From the NCBI RefSeq assembly GCF_020515625.1, contig NZ_JAIWPJ010000002.1, positions 682,001 through 746,000 on the forward strand: a stretch of 64,000 nt of DNA, in the 5' to 3' direction. This DNA comes from Natrinema amylolyticum (GTDB lineage Archaea; Halobacteriota; Halobacteria; Halobacteriales; Natrialbaceae). The position numbers were made by a program, and so were the translations under genes. Below the pieces are notes generated by a model. It made no database searches and was not told the DNA's origin. It was given only the letters and a program-made list of their open reading frames with translations. Below are positions 1 through 10,774 of this stretch, in pieces (position 1 is the first letter of the stretch; each line of letters opens with the position of its first letter).

Positions 1-1119
1 CTCCTCTTACTGATGGCGGGGTGTGTCACGCTGCCGAATAGCGGCCCCACGCTGTCGGACCTCGAGCGAGAGATCACCGCGGCCGAGCCGCCCGACGAAA
101 TCTCTGCGACGGTCGAGGATCGTCGGACGGTCGACGGCGAGACGACCCGGTACACCGAAACCGTCTGGCTCCGAGCCGACGGCGCGAGCCGGGTCGAAAC
201 CAGTCCCACCGACCGCGACGCCGGCACCGTCATCGTCGACGACGGCGATCGACGCTGGCACTACGACGCTGCCCACGACTGGGCGACGCGTCTCGAGACC
301 GACCCGGACGCAACGCCGTATCTCGAGGGGCTGTACGCACAGCAGGCACGGTATTTCGAGGCCTACGAGATCGCGGCGGTCGAAGAGGCGACCGTCGACG
401 GCCGAGTGACCTACCACGTCACGTTCGATCCGCCGGCCAACGAGACTATCGAGCGGTCGATCAGCGTCCTGATCGAGGACACCGAGTACGTCGTTCCGCT
501 GGCGACCAGCGAGCGCGAAGCCGCCGACCGCAGCGCCGACCGCATCGAGGTCTGGTACGATCAGGAGACGCTGTTCCCGGTCAAACAGGCTATCGAGGGC
601 GACGGCGTGACGCTCGAGCGGACCTACCGAAACGTCTCGGTCGACGGTGAGATCGACGACGAGCGCTTCGCGTTCGACCCAGCGACGGACGGGAACGGAA
701 CCGACGTCGAGAGCGTTACACTGCCGTCGATCGACTCGTACGAGAGCGTCGAGGCAGCCGATGAGAGCGTGCCGTTCGCGGTCGCCGAACCGCCGGCCGA
801 CGCGGTGCCCGAGTCGGTCGAACGCGACTCGATCACGAGGTACGAGTTCCCCGACGAAAACCGAACGCAGGTGTCGATCCGGTATCGGACGCCGACCGAC
901 GAGACGGTCTCGGTCACGACGAGCGACGGGCCGCGGCGGTTCGCGACCGGCGGCGACGCGGTCGCGGTCGGAAACACGACGGGGACCATCGCCGAGACCG
1001 ACGAGGGGACGGAACTGCAGTGGTCGTGTGGGGACCGCTACTATTCGGTGTTCGCCGGGCACGCCCTCGACGACGGGACCGCACTGCGAATCGGCGAATC
1101 GCTCTCGACAGGCTGTTAA
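1..1119 (+). CDS. LolA/RseB-like lipoprotein, 5' end cut by window
   Basis: This is a secreted lipid-anchored protein of unknown function. The reading frame is open from the first base and reads L-L-L-L-M-A-G-C, the end of a lipoprotein signal peptide with lipobox LMAGC, so the true start lies just outside the window. The mature part resembles the LolA/RseB/DUF4367 superfamily: it has repeated acidic beta-strand-like segments, a W-x-Y-D motif near residue 80, and the block DQETLFPVKQ near residue 185. A C-terminal domain has a WSCG motif and ends in Cys. It is a tandem paralogue of the next gene (same blocks in the same order) and of a third copy at 19591-20739. In bacteria this fold binds lipid or lipoprotein, but that role is not established in haloarchaea. 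Expected location is the outer face of the membrane. Confidence 0.8.
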   Translation, partial: LLLLMAGCVTLPNSGPTLSDLEREITAAEPPDEISATVEDRRTVDGETTRYTETVWLRADGASRVETSPTDRDAGTVIVDDGDRRWHYDAAHDWATRLETDPDATPYLEGLYAQQARYFEAYEIAAVEEATVDGRVTYHVTFDPPANETIERSISVLIEDTEYVVPLATSEREAADRSADRIEVWYDQETLFPVKQAIEGDGVTLERTYRNVSVDGEIDDERFAFDPATDGNGTDVESVTLPSIDSYESVEAADESVPFAVAEPPADAVPESVERDSITRYEFPDENRTQVSIRYRTPTDETVSVTTSDGPRRFATGGDAVAVGNTTGTIAETDEGTELQWSCGDRYYSVFAGHALDDGTALRIGESLSTGC

Positions 1120-1171
1120 TGCCGTCCGGAACCCGACACAATAATACATACCGGTGAGAGACACTCGAAAG

Positions 1172-2314
1172 ATGACACGACTGGGTCCGGCGCTGGGGCT
1201 CGCCGTCCTCGTCGTTCTGGCGGCGGGCTGTGTCACGCTTCCGGGCGGCGAGCGCGGTTCGACGCCGACCGCGGCGGAACTCGAAGCGCAGATCGACGAC
1301 GTCGACCCGCCGAGCGCTGCCACTGCGACGCTGGTGTCCGAGCGCGGTGATACCGTCGCGTACACCGAGGAGATGTGGCTGCGAGACGACGGTGCCACCA
1401 GGACGGAAACGACCGACGGTCGGTTCCGCAACGTCAACGACGGCGAGTGGGCCTGGTTCTACGACGTCGGTGCCGACCGAGTGACGGTGATCGACGCGAA
1501 CCGAACGCCGGACAGTCACTTCGCGTATCTCTACGACACGCAACGGACGTACTTCGACGAACTGGACGTCACCGCCATCGAGGAGGCGACGATCGACGGC
1601 CGTGAGACCTACCACGTCACGTTCGAGCCCCCTCGAGACGAGACCGTCGATACCGACATCACCGTCCTCGTCGGTGACACGGAGTTCGTGATTCCGCTCG
1701 AGACGAGCGAGACCGACGAATCCGCTGCTCCCGTCGCGGACCGGGTCGACGTCTGGATGGATCAGGAGACGCTGTTCCCGGTCAAACAGGAACTCGAGGG
1801 CGAGGGGATCGACCGAACGTGGACCTACACGGACCTCTCGTTCGGTGACGATATCGACGACGACCGCTTCGCGTTCGAACCTCCCGAAGACGCCGTCGTC
1901 GTCCAGAACGTGCATCCGTACGGCCGCTCGGTCGATTCGATCGCCGCCGCCGAGTCCGAGACGAACCTCACGGTCACCGAGCCGGCCCACCTCCCCGCGG
2001 ACCTCGAGCGCGACGAGATCGAGGTCACGCCGTCCCTCTCCGGGAACGCGACGACGGCCACGCTCCGGTACGCGGACGACGACCGGCGAACGATCCTCGT
2101 GAGTACGACCACGACGACGCGGCTGCCCGACGGAACCGGTGAGCCGATGACCGTCGGCGACCGGTCGATGACGAAAGTCGAGAGTCGGTTCGGGACCCAA
2201 CTCGCGTGGACCTGCGGTGAGCAGACGACCACCGTCTTCGCGACGTCAGAATTCGATCTCGAGACGGCGGTCGCGGTCGCGGAATCGATCGAGTGCGGAT
2301 CGGACTCGCGGTGA
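1172..2314 (+). CDS. LolA/RseB-like lipoprotein, tandem paralogue
   Basis: This is a second lipid-anchored surface protein (380 aa) with the same architecture as the gene 50 nt upstream. I chose the ATG at 1172 over an in-frame GTG at 1154 because it gives a compact signal peptide, MTRLGP followed by a hydrophobic stretch and the lipobox LAAGC. Shared blocks with the first copy include T-x-E-x-x-W-L-R near residue 70, DQETLFPVKQ near residue 200, D-D-x-R-F-A-F, and a W-T-C-G motif in the C-terminal domain. No enzyme residues are recognisable. The two genes are probably co-transcribed. Family membership in the LolA-like superfamily is inferred from the pattern of motifs, and the function is unknown. 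Confidence 0.8.
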   Translation: MTRLGPALGLAVLVVLAAGCVTLPGGERGSTPTAAELEAQIDDVDPPSAATATLVSERGDTVAYTEEMWLRDDGATRTETTDGRFRNVNDGEWAWFYDVGADRVTVIDANRTPDSHFAYLYDTQRTYFDELDVTAIEEATIDGRETYHVTFEPPRDETVDTDITVLVGDTEFVIPLETSETDESAAPVADRVDVWMDQETLFPVKQELEGEGIDRTWTYTDLSFGDDIDDDRFAFEPPEDAVVVQNVHPYGRSVDSIAAAESETNLTVTEPAHLPADLERDEIEVTPSLSGNATTATLRYADDDRRTILVSTTTTTRLPDGTGEPMTVGDRSMTKVESRFGTQLAWTCGEQTTTVFATSEFDLETAVAVAESIECGSDSR

Positions 2315-2409: not shown

Positions 2410-3345
2410 CTACGTGTGTCGGTCGAGCAGGTCGTAGCTGCGTTCCCACTCGGCGTCCTCGTCGAAGTAGCGCTCGGCCAGCGGCTGGTCCGGGAGCTCG
2501 CCGACGGCGGATTTCTCTTCCTGGTAGGACGGCCGGTCCTCGTCGACGTAGTAGCGGCCGGTCAGAACGGTCCCCTCGTTGAGGACGTCCTCGGTCTCGT
2601 ACATCATCTCGGCGGCCTCGCGCCGGTCGGTGACGTCGAAGTCGTAGTCGTCGGACTCCTGGACGTCGATGTACGGGACGTACTGACGCGCGTCCTTGTT
2701 CCAGGTCGGACACTGGGTCAGGAAGTCGACGTGGGCGAAGCCGTCGTGTTCGATGGCCTCGGCGATGATCTCCTTCGCCTGATTCGGGTTGACCGCGGCG
2801 GTGCGGGCGATGTAGCTCGCGCCGGCGGTCAGCGACTGCGAGAGCGGCCGGATGGGCGTCTTCGCGCTGCCCGACGGCTGGGTCTTGGACTTGTGACCCT
2901 TCGGGCTCGTGGGCGAGGTCTGGCCCTTCGTCAGGCCGAAGATCTCGTTGTTGAACACGATGTAGGTCATGTCGTGGTTCTCCCGGGCCGTGTGGATGAA
3001 GTGGTTCCCGCCGATTCCGTAGCCGTCGCCGTCACCGCCCGCGGCGATGACCTCGAGGTCGGTATTGGCGAGTTTGGCGGCGCGGGCTACGGGCAGCGAA
3101 CGGCCGTGGATCGTGTGGAACCCGTAGGTATCGAGATAGCTGTTCAGCTTACCGGAACAGCCGATCCCGGTGACGGTCAGCACTTCTTCGGGGGTCTTGC
3201 CGACTTCCGGCAGGGCCTGTTTCAGTGACTTCAGGACCCCGAAGTCACCACAGCCCGGACACCAGGTCGGCTGCGGTTCGACGCTGGGGGTGAACTCGTC
3301 CCGGTCGATCTCCCGTTCCTCTCCGATTGCGTTGAATGCACTCAT
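2410..3345 (-). CDS. korB: 2-oxoacid:ferredoxin oxidoreductase, beta subunit
   Basis: This is the thiamine-diphosphate subunit (311 aa) of a CoA-dependent 2-oxoacid:ferredoxin oxidoreductase, which converts pyruvate or 2-oxoglutarate to the acyl-CoA and reduces ferredoxin. It shows CPGC at residues 29-32, Cys63 and a Cys near 213, the pattern that ligates the single 4Fe-4S cluster of the two-subunit halobacterial enzymes. The ThDP/Mg motif GDGDG is at 104-108, with N-N at 132-133. No separate ferredoxin domain is present. It lies 3 nt downstream of the alpha subunit gene and is surely co-transcribed with it. Whether the substrate is pyruvate or 2-oxoglutarate cannot be decided from motifs; the two-subunit form with this sequence pattern is often annotated as Kor. 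Confidence 0.93.
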   Translation of the reverse strand: MSAFNAIGEEREIDRDEFTPSVEPQPTWCPGCGDFGVLKSLKQALPEVGKTPEEVLTVTGIGCSGKLNSYLDTYGFHTIHGRSLPVARAAKLANTDLEVIAAGGDGDGYGIGGNHFIHTARENHDMTYIVFNNEIFGLTKGQTSPTSPKGHKSKTQPSGSAKTPIRPLSQSLTAGASYIARTAAVNPNQAKEIIAEAIEHDGFAHVDFLTQCPTWNKDARQYVPYIDVQESDDYDFDVTDRREAAEMMYETEDVLNEGTVLTGRYYVDEDRPSYQEEKSAVGELPDQPLAERYFDEDAEWERSYDLLDRHT

Positions 3346-3348
3346 TGG

Positions 3349-5253
3349 TCAGTCACCTGCTGCGGGTTCGATTCGCACCTGTGCGGTGGGTTCGCGGTCA
3401 TCGTCGGCGAGGTTGACTTCGTAGCCCTCGACGACCTCGGCGGGTTCGAAGGGGTTGCCGTTGTACTTCAGCAGACTGGTCATCTTCTCGCCGAACCGGC
3501 CCAGTTCCTTCTGGATCAGTCCGCGGAACTGTGCGGTGGCGTTCATCTCGACGACCATCGCCTCGTCGACGCTCTCCAGGAACTCGGTCACTTCGGTCTC
3601 GGGGAACGGCATCATGTCGGAGACGCTCATTCCCTTTACGGAGTGGCCGCTCTCGTTGAGCCGTTCGACGGCCTCGTGGACAGCACCGTGACTCGAGCCC
3701 CACGTGATGATCCCGTACTCGGCGTCGTCGTCGCCGAAGTAGGTCTGATTCGACTCGTGTTCCTCGTTGAGTTCCTCGCGGATGGAGTCGAGTTTCTCGA
3801 TGCGCCGCGTCATCTGGGCGACGCGGTTGTCGGGGTCTTCGCTGATGTGACCGACGGGCGAGTGCTCGTTACCGGTCGCGAGGTAGCGGCCGCCCTTTTG
3901 GCCGGGCAGCGACCGCGGAGCGACGTTGTTCTCGGCGTCCTCGTAGTTGAACCGTTTGAACTTGCCGCTCGCGTCGTGGGCCGCTTCGGCGAGCTCGTCT
4001 TCGGTCAGCGTCGAGCCCAGATCCGGTTTCGGCTCGCGGTCGAAGAACTCGACGTCGACGTTCTTGTTCTCGCCGGAGAGCTTCTGATCGTAGATGACGA
4101 TCGCCGGAAGCTGGTAGTCCCAGGCGATCTCGAAGGCCAGTCGGGTCTGCTCGTAGGCCTCCTCGATACTACTGGGGGCGAAGACGACTCGAGAGGAGTC
4201 GCCCTGGCTCGTGTAGAGGACGAACTCGAGGTCGCCCTGTTCGGGTTTCGTCGGCATCCCGGTCGAGGGGCCGGCCCGCATCGATTCGACGAGGACGAGC
4301 GGCGTCTCGGTCATCTCCGCCAGCCCGAGCGGTTCGGACATCAGCGCGAAGCCACCGCCGGAGGAGCCGGACATGGCCTTCGCACCCGCGTGGCTCGCAC
4401 CGAGTGCGAGCGCCGCGGCGGCAATTTCGTCTTCGACCTGTTCGGAGACACCGCCCATGTCGGGGAAGTTCTGCGCGAGAATGGTGAACACGTCCGTCCA
4501 CGGCGTCATCGGGTAGCCGGCGATGAATCGGCAGCCGGCGTCGATCGCGCCGTAGGCGATCGCGTTCGAGCCCGACAGCAGCGCCTGCTCGGTCTCGTGA
4601 GAGCCCTCGGGCGCTCGCAGGTCGTGCTCGAACTCGTACTCCTCCCGGGTCGTCTCGTAGGCCTCGTGAAGGATCTCGAGGTTCGCCTCGAGGACGTCGC
4701 CGCCCATGGCGTCGGACATCAGGTCCTCGATGTGCTCGAGGTCCATGTCTAGCAGCGCCGCCGTCACGCCGACACCGGCGGTGTTGCGCATGACCTCGCG
4801 GCCGTGTTCCCGCGCGAGTCCGCGCAGATCCATCGGGAAGACGTGCCAATCGTTCTCCTCGGCGCGGGCCTCGAGATCGATCGCTTCGACGTCTTCCTCG
4901 CTGATGAGGCCCTCGTCGTAGACGATGATCCCGCCCTCGCGGAGGTCGTCTAAGTTCTCCGAGAGGGGTTTGATTTCTTCGTTCCCGTAGTAGGCCTCTT
5001 CCTGCGGGTTGCGGGCGAAGGAGTCGCCCAGCGAGAGCAGGAAGTTGTAGCCGTCACCGCGTGACTGTACCTCTCGGTCTGCAGCCCGGATTTCGACGTA
5101 GGTGTGGCCACCGCGGATCCGCGACGGATAGTGGCGGTGTGTAAACACGTCGAGTCCCGAGCGCATCAGCGCCTTGGCAAAGTTCTGGCTCGTCGAGTCG
5201 ATCCCGTCGCCGGAACCGCCCGCGATTCGCCAGATAAGTTCGTCGCTGCTCAT
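3349..5253 (-). CDS. korA: 2-oxoacid:ferredoxin oxidoreductase, alpha subunit (gamma-alpha fusion)
   Basis: This is the large subunit (634 aa) of the ferredoxin-linked 2-oxoacid oxidoreductase. The N-terminal 200 residues are the gamma domain (IAGGSGDGIDST near the start, then SRIRGGH). The rest is the pyrimidine-binding alpha domain with the Y-P-M-T-P-W motif and SGSSGGGFALM, and a C-terminal transketolase-like domain follows. I chose the ATG at 5253 (MSSDELIW) because it starts exactly at the conserved domain; an upstream in-frame ATG at 5355 would add 34 residues with no family resemblance. Gamma-alpha fusion is the normal form in halobacterial enzymes. The gene heads an operon with korB. 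Its promoter lies in the AT-rich intergenic region shared with the divergent E2-OsmC gene. Confidence 0.93.
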   Translation of the reverse strand: MSSDELIWRIAGGSGDGIDSTSQNFAKALMRSGLDVFTHRHYPSRIRGGHTYVEIRAADREVQSRGDGYNFLLSLGDSFARNPQEEAYYGNEEIKPLSENLDDLREGGIIVYDEGLISEEDVEAIDLEARAEENDWHVFPMDLRGLAREHGREVMRNTAGVGVTAALLDMDLEHIEDLMSDAMGGDVLEANLEILHEAYETTREEYEFEHDLRAPEGSHETEQALLSGSNAIAYGAIDAGCRFIAGYPMTPWTDVFTILAQNFPDMGGVSEQVEDEIAAAALALGASHAGAKAMSGSSGGGFALMSEPLGLAEMTETPLVLVESMRAGPSTGMPTKPEQGDLEFVLYTSQGDSSRVVFAPSSIEEAYEQTRLAFEIAWDYQLPAIVIYDQKLSGENKNVDVEFFDREPKPDLGSTLTEDELAEAAHDASGKFKRFNYEDAENNVAPRSLPGQKGGRYLATGNEHSPVGHISEDPDNRVAQMTRRIEKLDSIREELNEEHESNQTYFGDDDAEYGIITWGSSHGAVHEAVERLNESGHSVKGMSVSDMMPFPETEVTEFLESVDEAMVVEMNATAQFRGLIQKELGRFGEKMTSLLKYNGNPFEPAEVVEGYEVNLADDDREPTAQVRIEPAAGD

Positions 5254-5564
5254 AGGTGGATCAGTGGCCAGTGGCCAACCGTACGCAGAATTTGCTCCAC
5301 GTGACCTAAAGACTTTGCTATAGATTACCAAGGAACTTTCGTGAAGAATGGACATCCTTTGAAGAATATGTATGAACGATCATTAGAATAGTCGGGAAAC
5401 TCGTTCATAATTGTCCACATTTGCCCAGTCGACCGACATCACCGATGGCGAGCCACTCGCGGTAATCGTCCCGAAGTGTTCGTTGGGACGCCGTGCTTTC
5501 CCGCCGCCGACCGGCGGTTTCGACGAGCGATACCTTTTACACTCGTTCCATGGTACTCCGTCGC
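5254..5564. promoter_or_regulatory. divergent promoter region with 9-bp inverted repeat
   Basis: This 311-base gap lies between two divergent genes, korA (minus) and the E2-OsmC gene (plus). Bases 5300-5420 are clearly richer in A/T than the flanks. Within them TATGAACGA (5371-5379) and TCGTTCATA (5401-5409) form a perfect 9-bp inverted repeat with half-site centres 30 bp apart, about three helical turns, which is the geometry of a site bound by a dimeric regulator or by two dimers. A TATA-like CTATAG is at 5319-5324. No gene is visible in the gap. The operator role is inferred, not shown. Confidence 0.45.
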
Positions 5565-7394
5565 ATGAGTTACATCGTCCGAATGCCGAAGCTCGGGCTC
5601 GAGATGGAACGCGGGACGCTCCTCGAGTGGACCGTCGACGAGGGGGCGTCGGTCTCCGAGGGCGACCTGCTCGCCGAGGTCGAGTCGGAGAAGAGCGTCG
5701 CCGACGTCGAGGCCCGCGAGGACGGGGTTCTCCGGCGGACGTATCTCGAGGTCGACGAGTCGGTGCCGCCCGGGACGCCGATCGGAATCGTCGCGCCGGC
5801 CGAGAGCGATATCGGTGAGCTCGAGGCGGAGGCGACGGCCGATCTCGAGGCCAACGTGGCAGTGGAAGACGAGATCGAACTCGGCGGAGACGAGCGGACG
5901 GTCGGCTCGGCGTCTGGCGGGAGTGGAAGCAGTGCGAGAGGGGGGACGGAGGCGAGCGATAGCAAGGCTTCCCCTCGGGCGCGAGAGCGAGCAGCGGAGC
6001 TGGACGTGGATCTCTCGACGGTCGAGGGGACCGGCTATCAGGGGGCGATCACCGAAGACGACGTCGAACGAGCGGCCGCCGAGGCTCCGACCGAGAGCAG
6101 CGATCCCGACGCGTCGCCGCGGGCGCGCAAACGCGCCGAGGAACTCAGTGTCGACCTCGCGACCGTCGAGGGAACCGGCTATCAGGGGGCGATCACCGAA
6201 GCGGACGTCGAAGCGGCCGCGGCGGAGACCGGCGGCGCGAGCCGGACCCTCGCGGACGAGCGCCCATTCGACGGAATGCGCCGGACGATCGCCGCCCGCT
6301 TGAGCGAGAGCTACCGCGAGGCCGTTCACGTGACCGTTCACCGCGAGGCCGACGCCGAGGCGCTGCTCGCCGCCGCCGACGCCGCGGACGAAGCCCTCGA
6401 GGCCGACGTCTCGGTTCAGGACATCCTCCTCCGGGCCGTCTCGGCGACTCTCGAGGCACATCCCTCGTTCAACGCCACGTTCGAGGACGGCGTTCACAAC
6501 CGCTGGGAGGAACACAACGTCGGCATCGCCGTCGACGTCGAACAGGGGCTCATCGCCCCGGTGTTGCCGGACGTGGGGGGAAAGTCCCTCGCGGAGATCG
6601 CTGACGGGCGACGGGAACTCGTCGACCGCGCGACGAGCGGCGACTACACGATGGACGACCTGCAGGGCGGGACGTTCACCGTGACGAATCTCGGTGTCCT
6701 CGGCGTAGAGTCGTTCGATCCGATCATCAACCCGCCGCAGGTCGCCATTCTCGGCGTCGACGCCGTCGCGGAGCGGCCGGCCCGCGGCGCGGACGACGGA
6801 CTCGAGTGGCGGCGACATCTCCCGTTCGACCTCACGTTCGACCATCGGGTCGTCGACGGTGCGGACGCCGCCCGGTTCCTCGAGACGCTCGTCGAACGCG
6901 TCGAAGACCCGCGGCCGCTCCTCCCCGAGACCGTCGCCGCCGCGGCCGACCGAGCAGACGAGAGCGAGGCCGGTAGCGGGGACGAGACGGAGATGCCGGG
7001 TCGCACCGTCACCGCCACGAACCCGGCGGGAATGCGGGGCCGCATCGAAGCCGGGTCCTTCGAGTGGACGTACGACGAACCGGAATCGAGCGGCGGCACG
7101 GAGACCGGTCCGACCCCGGTCGACGTCTTCCTCGGCGGGCTCGCATCGTGTCTCTCGCTGAGCACCAGATATCAGGCGAACAAACGCGACGCGTCGGTCG
7201 ACGAGATCCGAGTCGATGCGGACGCGATGCCGGCGGCGGGGTCGGTCGAGCGGATCGAGGCGACGATCCGGATCGACGCCGACGCGGACGACGAGACCAT
7301 CGCGCGGATCGTCGACCTCGGCGAACGGGGCTGTCACGTCTCGGAACTGCTCCGCGAGGACCTCCCGCTGGACCTCTCCTGGGATCGCATCTGA
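5565..7394 (+). CDS. dihydrolipoamide acyltransferase (E2) with two PSBDs fused to an OsmC domain
   Basis: This is the E2 core of an acetoin/2-oxoacid dehydrogenase complex (609 aa), which moves an acyl group from lipoamide to CoA. I see a lipoyl domain (about 1-80, swinging-arm Lys43 in ESEKS), two near-identical peripheral subunit-binding domains (about 135-171 and 183-219, each with T-G-Y-Q-G-A-I-T-E), and the acyltransferase domain (about 228-460) with H427-R-V-V-D431-G. An OsmC-like domain (about 475-609) follows, with GPTPVDVFLGGLASC (Cys529) and GCHVSELL (Cys590), the two redox cysteines of that family. The ATG at 5565 starts at MSYIVRMPKLG; earlier in-frame starts lack homology. It converges on the AcoX-like/E1 genes, so the complex is encoded on both strands. 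No E3 gene is in the window. The OsmC fusion is unusual. Confidence 0.92.
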   Translation: MSYIVRMPKLGLEMERGTLLEWTVDEGASVSEGDLLAEVESEKSVADVEAREDGVLRRTYLEVDESVPPGTPIGIVAPAESDIGELEAEATADLEANVAVEDEIELGGDERTVGSASGGSGSSARGGTEASDSKASPRARERAAELDVDLSTVEGTGYQGAITEDDVERAAAEAPTESSDPDASPRARKRAEELSVDLATVEGTGYQGAITEADVEAAAAETGGASRTLADERPFDGMRRTIAARLSESYREAVHVTVHREADAEALLAAADAADEALEADVSVQDILLRAVSATLEAHPSFNATFEDGVHNRWEEHNVGIAVDVEQGLIAPVLPDVGGKSLAEIADGRRELVDRATSGDYTMDDLQGGTFTVTNLGVLGVESFDPIINPPQVAILGVDAVAERPARGADDGLEWRRHLPFDLTFDHRVVDGADAARFLETLVERVEDPRPLLPETVAAAADRADESEAGSGDETEMPGRTVTATNPAGMRGRIEAGSFEWTYDEPESSGGTETGPTPVDVFLGGLASCLSLSTRYQANKRDASVDEIRVDADAMPAAGSVERIEATIRIDADADDETIARIVDLGERGCHVSELLREDLPLDLSWDRI

Positions 7395-7498: not shown

Positions 7499-8518
7499 TC
7501 ACTCGTCCTCGATGAGAGAGTCGGTCATGTCGAAGCAGCCGGCGGCCGCGCCCGTCTCGAGCACGGCGTCGATGTCGACGAGTCGCGGCCCGTCCGAAAC
7601 GGGCGTCAGTTCGACGGTCGCGTCCGTGAGTTCGAGCTCTCGTTCGCCGTCAGCGCCGATGACCCCGTCCGGCACGTCGAACGTGACGGCGTCGTTCGGG
7701 CCGAGCCGTTCGGCCGACGCGACGCCGATCGTCGCGGTGACTCCCGGTGCGACGATCGATCGGACGGACCGCGACGCGTCCTCGGGGTCGGCGAGTCGGA
7801 GCGCGACGCCGCCCCGTTCGTCGGGTGCGAGCGACTCGAGGCCGCCCGCGACGGCCGGCAGTCCGATGTCGCCGGGACGGGCCCGCGAGACGACCCCGCC
7901 CCGAAGGTCGCTCGGATCGAGCAGCGCGCGAGTCCCGACGAACGACTTCGCGGAGACTTCCACGGCCGCGAGTCCGGTCAGCCGTCGCTCGCCGGTCGGC
8001 GTCTCGGCTCGAGCCTCGACCATTCCGTGTCGCGTCGTCACCGCCTCGGCCGGGACCGCGTCGGTCGCGACGAGCGCCGCCGCTGCGCCCGCGACTGTGC
8101 CGTCGACGGCCGACGGGACGACGGTGTTCGTTCCCGTCGAAACCGCGACGAGCGGGACGTCGCCGAGTTCGAGCGCGGCGTCGCGGGTCGTCCCGTCGCC
8201 GCCGAGGACGACCGCGACGTCGACCGCATCGCGGAACGCCGCCGCCGCTCGACGAGTATCGGTCGCGGTCTCTTCGACCGGCATCTCGAGCGTCGATGCG
8301 TCGATTTCCTCGGGGGCCTCCGCGACCGCGTGATCGGCGATCCCGGTCCGGTCCGGCATGACCAGGACCTCGAGCCGATCGCCCGCGACGGTCAGGCCGT
8401 CGAGAACGCACTCGGCGACCCGGCGCTTCGCGTAGTCGTCCACGACGCTCGCGCCGCCGGTGAGGCGGCGGATGTCGCGGCCCGCGGCGGGGTTGACGAG
8501 CAGACCGATGGTCGTCAC
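7499..8518 (-). CDS. AcoX-like protein, ATP-NAD kinase fold
   Basis: This 339-residue protein belongs to the NAD-kinase/AcoX group. It has the N-terminal nucleotide-binding start GLLVNPAAGR, the GGDGT motif at 106-110 that binds the phosphate chain in NAD kinases, and the S-T-G-T-N-T block that follows. AcoX genes in bacteria lie inside acetoin dehydrogenase operons and their biochemical job is not settled. Here the gene follows the E1beta gene by 12 nt on the same strand, which supports an acetoin-type role for the whole locus. It could alternatively be a true NAD kinase, but the operon position and divergent C-terminal half favour AcoX. Confidence 0.82.
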   Translation of the reverse strand: MTTIGLLVNPAAGRDIRRLTGGASVVDDYAKRRVAECVLDGLTVAGDRLEVLVMPDRTGIADHAVAEAPEEIDASTLEMPVEETATDTRRAAAAFRDAVDVAVVLGGDGTTRDAALELGDVPLVAVSTGTNTVVPSAVDGTVAGAAAALVATDAVPAEAVTTRHGMVEARAETPTGERRLTGLAAVEVSAKSFVGTRALLDPSDLRGGVVSRARPGDIGLPAVAGGLESLAPDERGGVALRLADPEDASRSVRSIVAPGVTATIGVASAERLGPNDAVTFDVPDGVIGADGERELELTDATVELTPVSDGPRLVDIDAVLETGAAAGCFDMTDSLIEDE

Positions 8519-8530
8519 GTGCGGGCCCCG

Positions 8531-9538
8531 CTACGCGATCCGCTGGATCGCGGCCCTGACGTCGTCGTCGCCGGGCAGGACCTCTTCCTCGAGGTGCGGG
8601 CTGAACGGGATGTGAGTGTCCGGCGTCCCGACCCGCTGGATCGGCGCGTCAAGGCTGAAGAACGCGTCCTCCTGGACGCGTGCGACGATCTCGGCGTGAG
8701 TACCGTACGAGAGCGGGCTCTCGTCCGCGACGACAAGCCGACCGGTCTTTTCGACGCTCTCGACGATCGTATCGACGTCCAGCGGGTACAGCGAGCGCGG
8801 ATCGATGACCTCGACGCTGACCTCGCCCTCGAGGGTCTCGGCCGCGCCGAGGGACTCGCCGACGAGTCGCTGCGTGGCGACGACGGTGACGTCCTCGCCC
8901 TCGCGTTCGACGGCCGCCTCCCCGAGCGGGACGGTAAACTCCTCGTCGGTCGGCACCTCGCCCGACTGCTCGTAGATCATCTTGTTCTCGAAGACGAACA
9001 CGGGGTCGTTCGATCGGATAGCGGCCTTCGTCAGCCCCTTCGCGCTCGCGGGAGTCCCCGGAACGACGGCCTTCAGTCCCGGGAAGTGCGCGATCCAGGA
9101 GTGGACCGTCCCCGAGTGCTGGCTGGCGGCCCCCATGCCGCCGCCCTCAGTCGTCCGGACGGTGACCGGCATGTCGGCCTTCCCGCCGAACATGTAGCGC
9201 ATCTTCGCCATCTGGTTCATGATCTGTTCCATCGAGACGCCCGCGAAGTCCGAGAACATGAGTTCGACGACCGGCCGCGTCCCAGTCGCCGCCGCGCCGG
9301 TCGCGGCCCCCATGAAGCCGGCCTCGCTGATCGGCGTGTCCCGGATCCGTTCCTCGCCGAACTCCTCGAGCAGGCCGCTGGTCACCTCGAGGACGCCGCC
9401 GAAGAGCCCGACGTCCTCGCCCATGACGTAGACGTCCTCGTCGCGCTCGAGTTCCTCGCGGAGGGCCTGCCGGATCGCCTCCCGAACGGTCATCGTCTCG
9501 GTCTCGAGTCCCAGTTCCGCTTCCGTCTGTGCGGTCAT
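8531..9538 (-). CDS. 2-oxoacid/acetoin dehydrogenase E1 component, beta subunit
   Basis: This 335-residue protein is the beta half of the ThDP-dependent E1 decarboxylase/dehydrogenase. It begins with a short acidic leader and then TVREAIRQAL, the usual E1beta start. It contains GLFGGVLEVT, the conserved PISEAGFMGAATGAA block near residue 70, and the C-terminal transketolase-C domain with E-x-x-V-L-P near the end. Its start overlaps the end of the E1alpha gene by 4 nt (ATGA), so the two are translationally coupled. Together they form an alpha2beta2 E1 that reductively acylates the lipoyl group of the neighbouring E2. Substrate (acetoin, pyruvate or branched-chain oxoacid) cannot be read from the sequence; the AcoX neighbour points to acetoin. 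Confidence 0.9.
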   Translation of the reverse strand: MTAQTEAELGLETETMTVREAIRQALREELERDEDVYVMGEDVGLFGGVLEVTSGLLEEFGEERIRDTPISEAGFMGAATGAAATGTRPVVELMFSDFAGVSMEQIMNQMAKMRYMFGGKADMPVTVRTTEGGGMGAASQHSGTVHSWIAHFPGLKAVVPGTPASAKGLTKAAIRSNDPVFVFENKMIYEQSGEVPTDEEFTVPLGEAAVEREGEDVTVVATQRLVGESLGAAETLEGEVSVEVIDPRSLYPLDVDTIVESVEKTGRLVVADESPLSYGTHAEIVARVQEDAFFSLDAPIQRVGTPDTHIPFSPHLEEEVLPGDDDVRAAIQRIA

Positions 9539-10581
9539 CGGCGGTCACCTCCGTTCGCACCGCCGTCGGGACGCGCGGTCGCGGCGAACCGATCGAGTTC
9601 CGGCGGCCGATCGGCGAACATGTCCTCGTAGGCCGCGCTCGGCTCCGGTGGATCCGCCGCCTTCGCGTACTCGACCGCGTCATCGATCGTCGACTCGACC
9701 GCCGAACGCAGGTCCGCGAACTCGTCGTCGGTCAGTTCGCCGCGTTCGATCAGTCGGTCTCTGAACGATTCGATCGCGTCCCGGTCCTTCCAGCGTTCGA
9801 TCTCGGACTCGTCGCGGTAGGGCTCCTCGTCGCCCTCGTAGTGGCCGCGGTAGCGGTAGGTCTGGGCCTCTACCAGTGTGGGTCCGTCGCCGGCGCGGGC
9901 CCGCTCTCGGGCCTCGGCGACCGCTTCCGCGACGGCGGTGACGTCCATCCCGTCGACCGTCACCCCCGGAATGTCGTACGCCTGGGCCGTATCGCTCAGG
10001 TTGTCGACGTTGTGCTGTTTCTCGACGGGGGTGCCTTCCCCGTAGCGGTTGTTCTCGACGACGAAGATCGCCGGCAGGTCCCACGTCGCGGCGAGATTGA
10101 TCGCCTCGTGGATCTGGCCCTGTGCGACGGCCCCGTCGCCCAGGAAGCCGACCGCGACCTGATCGCGGTCCCGATAGTCGATCGTCAGCGCCGCGCCGGT
10201 CGCGAGCGGCGGTCCGGCACCAACGATCCCGTTCGCGCCGAGCATTCCCTCGTCGACGTCGGCGATATGCATCGAACCGCCCTTGCCGTTACAGTAGCCC
10301 TCGGCCTTGCCGTAGAGTTCGGCCATCATGTACTTCGGATCGAGCCCCTTCGCGATGCAGTGACCGTGACCGCGGTGCGTGCTCGCGATGTAATCGTCGG
10401 GCTCGAGCGACGCACAGGTGCCGACGCCGACCGCCTCCTCTCCGATATAGAGGTGGACGAACCCCGGTATCTCTCCGTCCGCGAACCGTTCCCCTGCTTC
10501 CTCGTCGAACGCCCGGATGGTCACCATCCGGCGCAACGCCTCCCGTCGGCCGTCCGCGCTGTCGAGGTCAAAGTCTGCCAT
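9535..10581 (-). CDS. 2-oxoacid/acetoin dehydrogenase E1 component, alpha subunit
   Basis: This 348-residue protein carries the ThDP/Mg motif of E1alpha, GDGAVAQGQIHEA followed about 20 residues later by V-V-E-N-N-R-Y-G. It also has the upstream GKGGSMH block and the ST-H-R-G-H-G-H motif. The ATG at 10581 (MADFDLDS) was chosen because in-frame starts further upstream run into the AT-rich promoter. A TATA-like ATATATC lies at 10614-10620, about 36 nt before the start. It is the first gene of an E1alpha-E1beta-AcoX operon. The residues around GKGGSMHI match the acetoin/pyruvate branch of the family, but fine substrate assignment is not possible. Confidence 0.9.
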   Translation of the reverse strand: MADFDLDSADGRREALRRMVTIRAFDEEAGERFADGEIPGFVHLYIGEEAVGVGTCASLEPDDYIASTHRGHGHCIAKGLDPKYMMAELYGKAEGYCNGKGGSMHIADVDEGMLGANGIVGAGPPLATGAALTIDYRDRDQVAVGFLGDGAVAQGQIHEAINLAATWDLPAIFVVENNRYGEGTPVEKQHNVDNLSDTAQAYDIPGVTVDGMDVTAVAEAVAEARERARAGDGPTLVEAQTYRYRGHYEGDEEPYRDESEIERWKDRDAIESFRDRLIERGELTDDEFADLRSAVESTIDDAVEYAKAADPPEPSAAYEDMFADRPPELDRFAATARPDGGANGGDRR

Positions 10582-10613
10582 GTGACCTGTCCTGTGGTAC
10601 GATATCATGTGCC

Positions 10614-10620
10614 ATATATC
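10614..10620 (-). promoter_or_regulatory. TATA-like element before the E1alpha gene
   Basis: An A/T run, GATATATGG on the minus strand, is set about 36 nt before the E1alpha start codon in an otherwise GC-rich region. A second A/T block (GATATAATC on the minus strand) lies about 25 nt further upstream. Either could position the pre-initiation complex. Spacing suggests a short 5' leader rather than a leaderless transcript. Confidence 0.35.
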
Positions 10621-10774
10621 TAGCATCCATAATCTGATTATATCACCGGCTAAACCCTCCAGATACCGAGAATGAAACCGATTCGTGGGAGCGTCGGTCG
10701 GTGACCGACGACAGTCGATCGCTACGGGACGACCGTCGCTCCCGGCCGCCTATCGCCTCCGTTCCGTCCGTCGG

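What the first reader, a model, noticed from the sequence alone, without database searches (positions are those of the whole stretch)
5565..7394. E2 acyltransferase fused to an OsmC thiol-peroxidase domain with doubled PSBD
Seen directly: lipoyl domain (Lys43), two PSBDs, acyltransferase with H427/D431, then an OsmC-like domain with both expected cysteines (Cys529, Cys590). Known: some Ohr/OsmC proteins are lipoyl-dependent peroxidases, taking electrons from lipoylated 2-oxoacid dehydrogenase components. A fusion would put donor and acceptor in one chain, so the swinging lipoyl arm could serve either CoA acylation or peroxide reduction. Inferred: the complex may protect itself or use NADH/E3 to detoxify organic hydroperoxides. 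This is the best candidate in the window for an undescribed system.
Basis: partly seen in the sequence, partly recalled or inferred. Interest (0 to 1): 0.78.

Follow-up and report, generated by a model that had tools for sequence, protein, structure and literature searches.

The report
Dehydrogenase E2 carrying an OsmC redox domain
In many salt-loving archaea the lipoic-acid-carrying core protein of a metabolic enzyme complex is fused to a two-cysteine redox domain of the OsmC family, and when evolution deletes the complex this redox domain is repeatedly kept, so it probably has a job of its own.

Summary
Window 5565-7394 encodes one 609-aa chain: lipoyl domain (K43), two E3-binding domains, acyltransferase (H427/D431) and a C-terminal OsmC domain (C529/C590). 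It is not an assembly artefact: I found 50 full-length E2-OsmC proteins in about 22 haloarchaeal genera, all keeping K43 and both cysteines. No fusion was seen among the E2s listed from 239 genomes around two bacterial anchors, or on plasmids. The gene sits between korAB and an aco-like acoX/E1b/E1a cluster.

The new result concerns separability. Ten haloarchaeal proteins are only lipoyl-like domain plus OsmC. All ten lost the lipoyl lysine and kept both cysteines. Seven of them lie at this same korAB-aroC locus with E1a, E1b and acoX gone. The tree needs about 6-7 separate changes. Both halves still evolve under purifying selection. So the OsmC domain works without an in-chain lipoyl arm. It also lacks the catalytic Arg and Glu of Ohr peroxidases (M490, invariant V519) and resembles the YhfA-type subfamily, whose activity is unknown.

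The fusion is supported; "lipoyl-dependent peroxidase in cis" is possible but unproven and cannot be the whole story. I found no paper describing it. New variant of a known kind.

The parts
5565..5804 (+). lipoyl domain; lipoyl-attachment Lys43 codon at 5691-5693
   Evidence: Pfam PF00364; K43 invariant in full-length fusions
5964..6089 (+). first E3/E1-binding domain (PSBD)
   Evidence: Pfam PF02817, two stretches; predicted helices 137-146 and 164-173
6111..6212 (+). second E3/E1-binding domain, 32 of 38 residues identical to the first
   Evidence: Pfam PF02817
6249..6929 (+). acyltransferase catalytic domain; H427 codon 6843-6845, D431 codon 6855-6857
   Evidence: Pfam PF00198; catalytic motif FDHRVVDG intact
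6999..7391 (+). C-terminal OsmC domain; C529 codon 7149-7151, C590 codon 7332-7334
   Evidence: Pfam PF02566; AF2 pLDDT 95.5; Foldseek to OsmC/Ohr/YhfA structures
7499..8518 (-). AcoX-like NAD-kinase-family protein, convergent partner of the cluster
   Evidence: Pfam PF01513; tblastn to bacterial NAD(+)/NADH kinases lying beside E1 alpha genes; synteny
8531..9538 (-). E1 beta of the 2-oxoacid/acetoin-type dehydrogenase
   Evidence: Pfam Transket_pyr and Transketolase_C, NCBIfam PRK09212 above cut-off
9535..10626 (-). E1 alpha of the 2-oxoacid/acetoin-type dehydrogenase
   Evidence: Pfam E1_dh; ortholog accompanies nearly all full-length fusions of this locus and is absent from most short-form genomes
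2410..5355 (-). korAB, 2-oxoacid:ferredoxin oxidoreductase, divergently transcribed neighbour that anchors the syntenic locus
   Evidence: NCBIfam OAFO_sf and PorB_KorB; conserved next to long, short and split forms in Natrialbaceae

Best explanation
The protein is the E2 core subunit of an acetoin/2-oxoacid dehydrogenase complex that carries an autonomous two-cysteine OsmC-type redox domain at its C-terminus. Most likely mechanism: Cys529, on the long central helix, reacts with an oxidant (organic hydroperoxide or peracid, or an oxidised thiol). Cys590 then closes a disulfide. Dihydrolipoyl arms of the complex, recharged by E1 or by NADH and E3, reduce that disulfide. The fusion places the redox domain beside its reductant and beside oxygen-exposed thiamine enzymes (E1, KorAB), but does not make the in-chain lipoyl arm essential. 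When the complex is lost, the OsmC domain survives and must be reduced in trans, by lipoyl domains of another E2 or by gamma-glutamylcysteine. Shown: domain make-up, invariance of both cysteines, synteny, recurrence of E2-less forms without lipoyl lysine, purifying selection. Inferred: electron source, peroxide substrate, disulfide cycle.
For: Fifty full-length fusions, all with K43 and both cysteines. Ten E2-less forms, all with both cysteines and none with the lysine, seven of them at the same korAB-aroC locus after loss of E1a/E1b/acoX. About 6-7 separate changes on the tree. dN/dS 0.18-0.19 in OsmC of close short-form pairs. The genomes with short or reduced forms keep another E2 in 11 of 11 and an E3 over the cut-off in 10 of 11. 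One genus has OsmC split off but still beside the cluster. The OsmC fold matches Ohr structures, including one described as interacting with dihydrolipoamide, 6ebg. Literature: Ohr is reduced by lipoylated proteins (PMC4069020, PMC5962072); haloarchaea hold millimolar gamma-glutamylcysteine (PMC7278568).
Against: Ohr's catalytic Arg and Glu are not conserved; the motif is YhfA-like and no peroxidase activity is known for that subfamily (PMC5962072). Some genomes keep an orthologous cluster with no OsmC at all (L128-L132), so the domain is not essential for the complex. No biochemical evidence exists.
Confidence: 0.45

Rival explanations
1. One reading: a lipoyl-dependent hydroperoxide reductase working strictly in cis, with the lipoyl arm of the same chain (or same core) serving CoA acylation and peroxide reduction in turn.
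For: Lipoyl lysine and both cysteines are invariant together in all 50 full-length fusions. Lipoyl-dependent Ohr/OsmC peroxidases exist (PMC4069020, PMC5962072).
Against: OsmC with both cysteines persists in ten forms without lipoyl lysine or acyltransferase and as a separate gene in one genus. Ohr Arg and Glu are missing.
Confidence: 0.2
2. The OsmC domain is not a peroxidase but a YhfA-like thiol/disulfide or sulfur-handling domain, or a redox switch that senses oxidants and tunes the complex.
For: YhfA-type motif: hydrophobic residue at C-10 and acid at C-9; close fold match to YhfA 1ml8, TM 0.85, rmsd 2.2; invariant V519, R588 and C590 with near-invariant H591 suggest different chemistry.
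Against: Retention after loss of the complex is hard to square with a regulator of that complex only. Hydroperoxide reductases are also among the best profile and fold matches.
Confidence: 0.25
3. An accidental fusion: OsmC is a passenger, or only a dimerising module that cross-links E2 trimers, without functional coupling to the complex.
For: Fusion is absent or split in several lineages. OsmC proteins are dimers (PMC5962072), so a structural role is conceivable.
Against: Both cysteines are invariant in 65 long, short and split homologues, which a structural role does not need. The fusion is kept across four families.
Confidence: 0.1

Closest known systems
Ohr (organic hydroperoxide resistance protein), lipoyl-dependent peroxidase; e.g. 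Xylella XfOhr
   Same: OsmC fold; two cysteines at equivalent positions; possible reduction by lipoyl groups
   Different: Catalytic Arg19 and Glu51 are replaced by M490 (variable) and V519 (invariant); Ohr is a free homodimer, here fused to E2
YhfA / OsmC-like subfamily (E. coli YhfA, PDB 1ml8)
   Same: Fold (TM 0.85), PxPh(D/E) motif before the first cysteine, both cysteines
   Different: About 19% identity; YhfA is a stand-alone protein of unknown activity
E2 (dihydrolipoyl acyltransferase) of pyruvate/acetoin dehydrogenase complexes
   Same: Lipoyl, PSBD and catalytic domains with intact catalytic residues; E1a, E1b and acoX-like genes beside it
   Different: Extra C-terminal OsmC domain; doubled PSBD; substrate unknown
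Haloferax volcanii OADH complexes (PMC8305020)
   Same: Haloarchaeal complexes, some with aco-like E1 subunits, with no proven substrate except isoleucine for one
   Different: No OsmC fusion described in the papers searched
Trichomonas OsmC with the incomplete glycine decarboxylase complex (Nyvltova 2016, title cited in PMC10332631)
   Same: An OsmC protein working with part of a lipoyl-bearing complex in peroxide removal
   Different: Separate proteins, not a fusion; the paper itself was not read here
Alpha/beta hydrolase-OsmC type fusion (PDB 9wo1, 400 residues)
   Same: OsmC domain at the C-terminus of a longer chain; second-best profile hit
   Different: No lipoyl domain; the identity of its N-terminal part is from memory and was not tested

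Membership tests
E2 of 2-oxoacid/acetoin dehydrogenase complexes | Lipoyl domain with acceptor lysine | tested here: met
   PF00364 and K43 in ESEKS; invariant
E2 of 2-oxoacid/acetoin dehydrogenase complexes | Peripheral-subunit-binding domain | tested here: met
   PF02817 twice
E2 of 2-oxoacid/acetoin dehydrogenase complexes | Acyltransferase domain with catalytic His and Asp | tested here: met
   H427 and D431 in FDHRVVDG
E2 of 2-oxoacid/acetoin dehydrogenase complexes | Partner E1 and E3 present | tested here: met
   E1b and E1a at 8531-10626; two E3 genes over cut-off elsewhere in the genome
Acetoin dehydrogenase (aco) systems | AcoX-type NAD-kinase-like gene with acoAB-like E1 genes | tested here: met
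   PF01513 protein between E2 and E1; bacterial relatives lie next to E1a relatives, e.g. NZ_CP062173.1
Acetoin dehydrogenase (aco) systems | Acetoin as substrate | not testable with these tools
   Haloarchaeal relatives have no proven substrate (PMC8305020)
Ohr/OsmC family (fold level) | OsmC fold | tested here: met
   PF02566 above cut-off; Foldseek probability 1.00 to OsmC/Ohr entries
Ohr/OsmC family (fold level) | Two conserved cysteines | tested here: met
   C529 and C590 in every long, short and split form
Ohr lipoyl-dependent peroxidases | Catalytic Arg and Glu around the peroxidatic Cys | tested here: not met
   Positions are M490 (variable) and V519 (invariant)
Ohr lipoyl-dependent peroxidases | Lipoamide-dependent hydroperoxide reduction | not testable with these tools
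   Needs purified protein
Ohr lipoyl-dependent peroxidases | Intertwined homodimer with active sites at the interface | not tested
   Only monomer models were made
YhfA/OsmC-like subfamily | Hydrophobic residue at C-10 and acid at C-9, both cysteines | tested here: met
   TPVDVFLGGLASC versus SPMEMVLMAAGGC of E. coli YhfA; assignment rests on this motif and the fold, not on a family-wide tree

The most novel reading that the evidence does not exclude
Haloarchaea built a redox-active E2 in which a YhfA-type OsmC domain with a new catalytic set (for instance D520, R588, H591) draws electrons from a 2-oxoacid/acetoin dehydrogenase core. When the complex is discarded, the protein is repeatedly cut down to a lysine-less lipoyl-like domain plus OsmC with a lasting cellular function. 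This would give a first function to YhfA-type OsmC proteins.
Probability: 0.25. Interest if true: 0.78.

Novelty: new variant of a known kind. Interest (0 to 1): 0.58.

Why it matters
It physically links a lipoyl-bearing complex to an OsmC domain, so it makes two open questions testable in culturable organisms: what YhfA-type OsmC proteins do, and why haloarchaea keep dehydrogenase complexes with no known substrate. The repeated natural deletions are a ready-made set of experiments on which parts of the protein the OsmC function needs.

Tried and rejected
Assembly artefact or frameshift: rejected, 50 fusions in many genomes. Loss of a cysteine in homologues: rejected. My first impression, that short lipoyl-OsmC forms prove direct lipoyl-to-OsmC transfer, was dropped when all ten proved to lack the lysine. 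Fusion in bacteria: the E2s listed at E<=1e-60 from 119 and 120 genomes around two bacterial anchors end at about profile position 447-511, none reaching the OsmC cysteines; on plasmids no place covers 80% of the query. A phylum-wide OsmC search gave no further long fusion; one long frame there, L142, was spurious with the second Cys missing. Long frames around other haloarchaeal OsmC hits (L112, L143-L145) are spurious open frames upstream of ordinary OsmC genes. Literature searches for the fusion found nothing relevant; the key Ohr paper (PMC2903379) is not held. No solved relative of the acoX-like protein was found.

Full report
WHAT IS THERE. The frame at 5565-7394 (+) encodes 609 residues with a lipoyl domain, two PSBDs, an intact acyltransferase domain and an OsmC domain, all above Pfam cut-offs. 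The only two cysteines of the protein are the two OsmC cysteines. The window is from a member of the Natrialbaceae near Natrinema/Haloterrigena (inferred from the nearest named relatives, and genome kinship).

SURROUNDINGS. korB and korA (2-oxoacid:ferredoxin oxidoreductase) are divergently transcribed upstream. Downstream and convergent lie an NAD-kinase-family gene, E1 beta and E1 alpha. Bacterial relatives of the kinase-like gene lie beside relatives of E1 alpha, and acoX of acetoin operons is described as a predicted NAD kinase (PMC9676059), so this is an aco-like cluster; the substrate is unknown, as for nearly all haloarchaeal complexes (PMC8305020). No E3 was found in the cluster; two E3 genes over the NCBIfam cut-off lie elsewhere in the genome. 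The genome has only two OsmC-family proteins: this one and a stand-alone one on contig 1.

DISTRIBUTION. An OsmC-domain search of 392 haloarchaeal genomes and the fetched neighbourhoods gave 50 full-length E2-OsmC proteins (window included) from about 22 genera in four families. All keep the lipoyl lysine and both cysteines; in an alignment of 24 the five key residues are invariant. E2s listed at E<=1e-60 from 119 and 120 genomes around two bacterial anchors stop before the OsmC cysteines, and no plasmid record covers 80% of the query in one place. The fusion therefore looks haloarchaeal, within the limits of these samples.

THE NATURAL DELETIONS. Ten proteins consist of a lipoyl-like domain plus OsmC with no PSBD or acyltransferase. 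Pfam finds OsmC in all ten and a weakened Biotin_lipoyl match in all ten, seven of them above the curated cut-off. All ten have lost the lipoyl lysine (R, S, A, T, S, G, A, T, G, H), while both cysteines remain; the placing of the lysine position is uncertain in the two most divergent ones (L095, L098), but no lysine lies at that turn in either. Seven lie at the very same locus as the window gene, next to korAB and aroC (six of them also next to the PHP gene), with E1a, E1b and acoX gone. Apart from G317, which has both a full fusion and a short form, the short-form genomes have no close E1a ortholog, but all keep another E2 and a dihydrolipoamide-dehydrogenase-like protein, over the E3 cut-off in 10 of the 11 genomes searched. 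In the OsmC tree the short forms need seven changes, six of them forced by well-supported branches; the tree rests on 133 columns, and transfer between species cannot be excluded for the three short forms at other loci. The persistence of a lysine-less lipoyl-like domain argues that the short forms derive from the long one, not the reverse. dN/dS between close short-form pairs is 0.18-0.19 for OsmC and 0.25-0.28 for the lipoyl-like part, so both are still selected, OsmC more strongly.

THE OPPOSITE LOSSES. In three other genera the complex is kept but the E2 has no OsmC. In g18, g4 and two of the three g19 genomes examined, its acyltransferase has lost the catalytic His and mostly the Asp (for example LTYDARAIGG), while lipoyl lysine and PSBDs remain. 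In g18 OsmC persists as a separate gene of about 131 residues between aroC and E1a. One g19 genome (L132) has an intact acyltransferase, three PSBD-like segments and no OsmC. So complex and OsmC are separable in both directions.

WHAT KIND OF OsmC. The domain model is confident (pLDDT 95.5) and matches OsmC, Ohr and YhfA structures. In Ohr the reactive Cys, Arg19 and Glu51 form a triad (PMC5962072). Here the Arg position is M490 and varies in the family, and the Glu position is V519, invariant in the 24-sequence alignment, with an acid next to it (D520). E. coli OsmC has the Ohr-type Glu (NPE); E. coli YhfA has the same pattern as the window protein. YhfA-type proteins have no known activity (PMC4069020, PMC5962072). 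The peroxidase label is therefore an inference from the fold and the cysteines.

MECHANISM. I favour an autonomous two-cysteine redox domain that is normally parked on a dihydrolipoyl-rich core and reduced by it, and that can be reduced in trans when the core is gone. A purely cis mechanism does not explain the short forms. A structural passenger does not explain invariant cysteines. A non-peroxidase thiol role is the strongest rival. One conceivable source of substrate is peracid or peroxide formed when oxygen attacks the thiamine carbanion in E1 or in the neighbouring KorAB; this is from general enzymology and was not tested.

NOVELTY. Each part is known; the combination, its conservation and its repeated pruning were not found in the papers searched. 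A subscription-journal report cannot be excluded.

Noticed in passing
L071 12413-13945 (-), L128 4992-6338 (+), L130 4903-6267 (+), L131 5000-6409 (+): Orthologous E2s in genera g18, g4 and g19 keep lipoyl lysine, PSBDs and the E1a-E1b-acoX cluster but have a degenerate acyltransferase domain (catalytic His lost, Asp mostly lost); how such a complex releases its acyl group is unexplained.
   Followed up: partly
L132 4753-6615 (+): An E2 of the same cluster with three PSBD-like segments, the first two 36 of 38 residues identical, and no OsmC domain.
   Followed up: no
window 5964-6212: The two PSBDs within one protein are often nearly as alike as orthologues between species, suggesting recent duplication or gene conversion in many lineages.
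   Followed up: partly
L100 8191-9567 (-): An intermediate: degenerate lipoyl region without the lysine, no PSBD found, but intact acyltransferase and OsmC.
   Followed up: no
window 13-1119 and 1154-2314 (+): Two tandem genes that look like paralogous lipoproteins (both start regions hold GCVTLP, similar bodies).
   Followed up: no
L108, L109, L110: More distant E2-OsmC fusions in genus g14 lie with a different E1 pair on the same strand and without the acoX-like gene.
   Followed up: no
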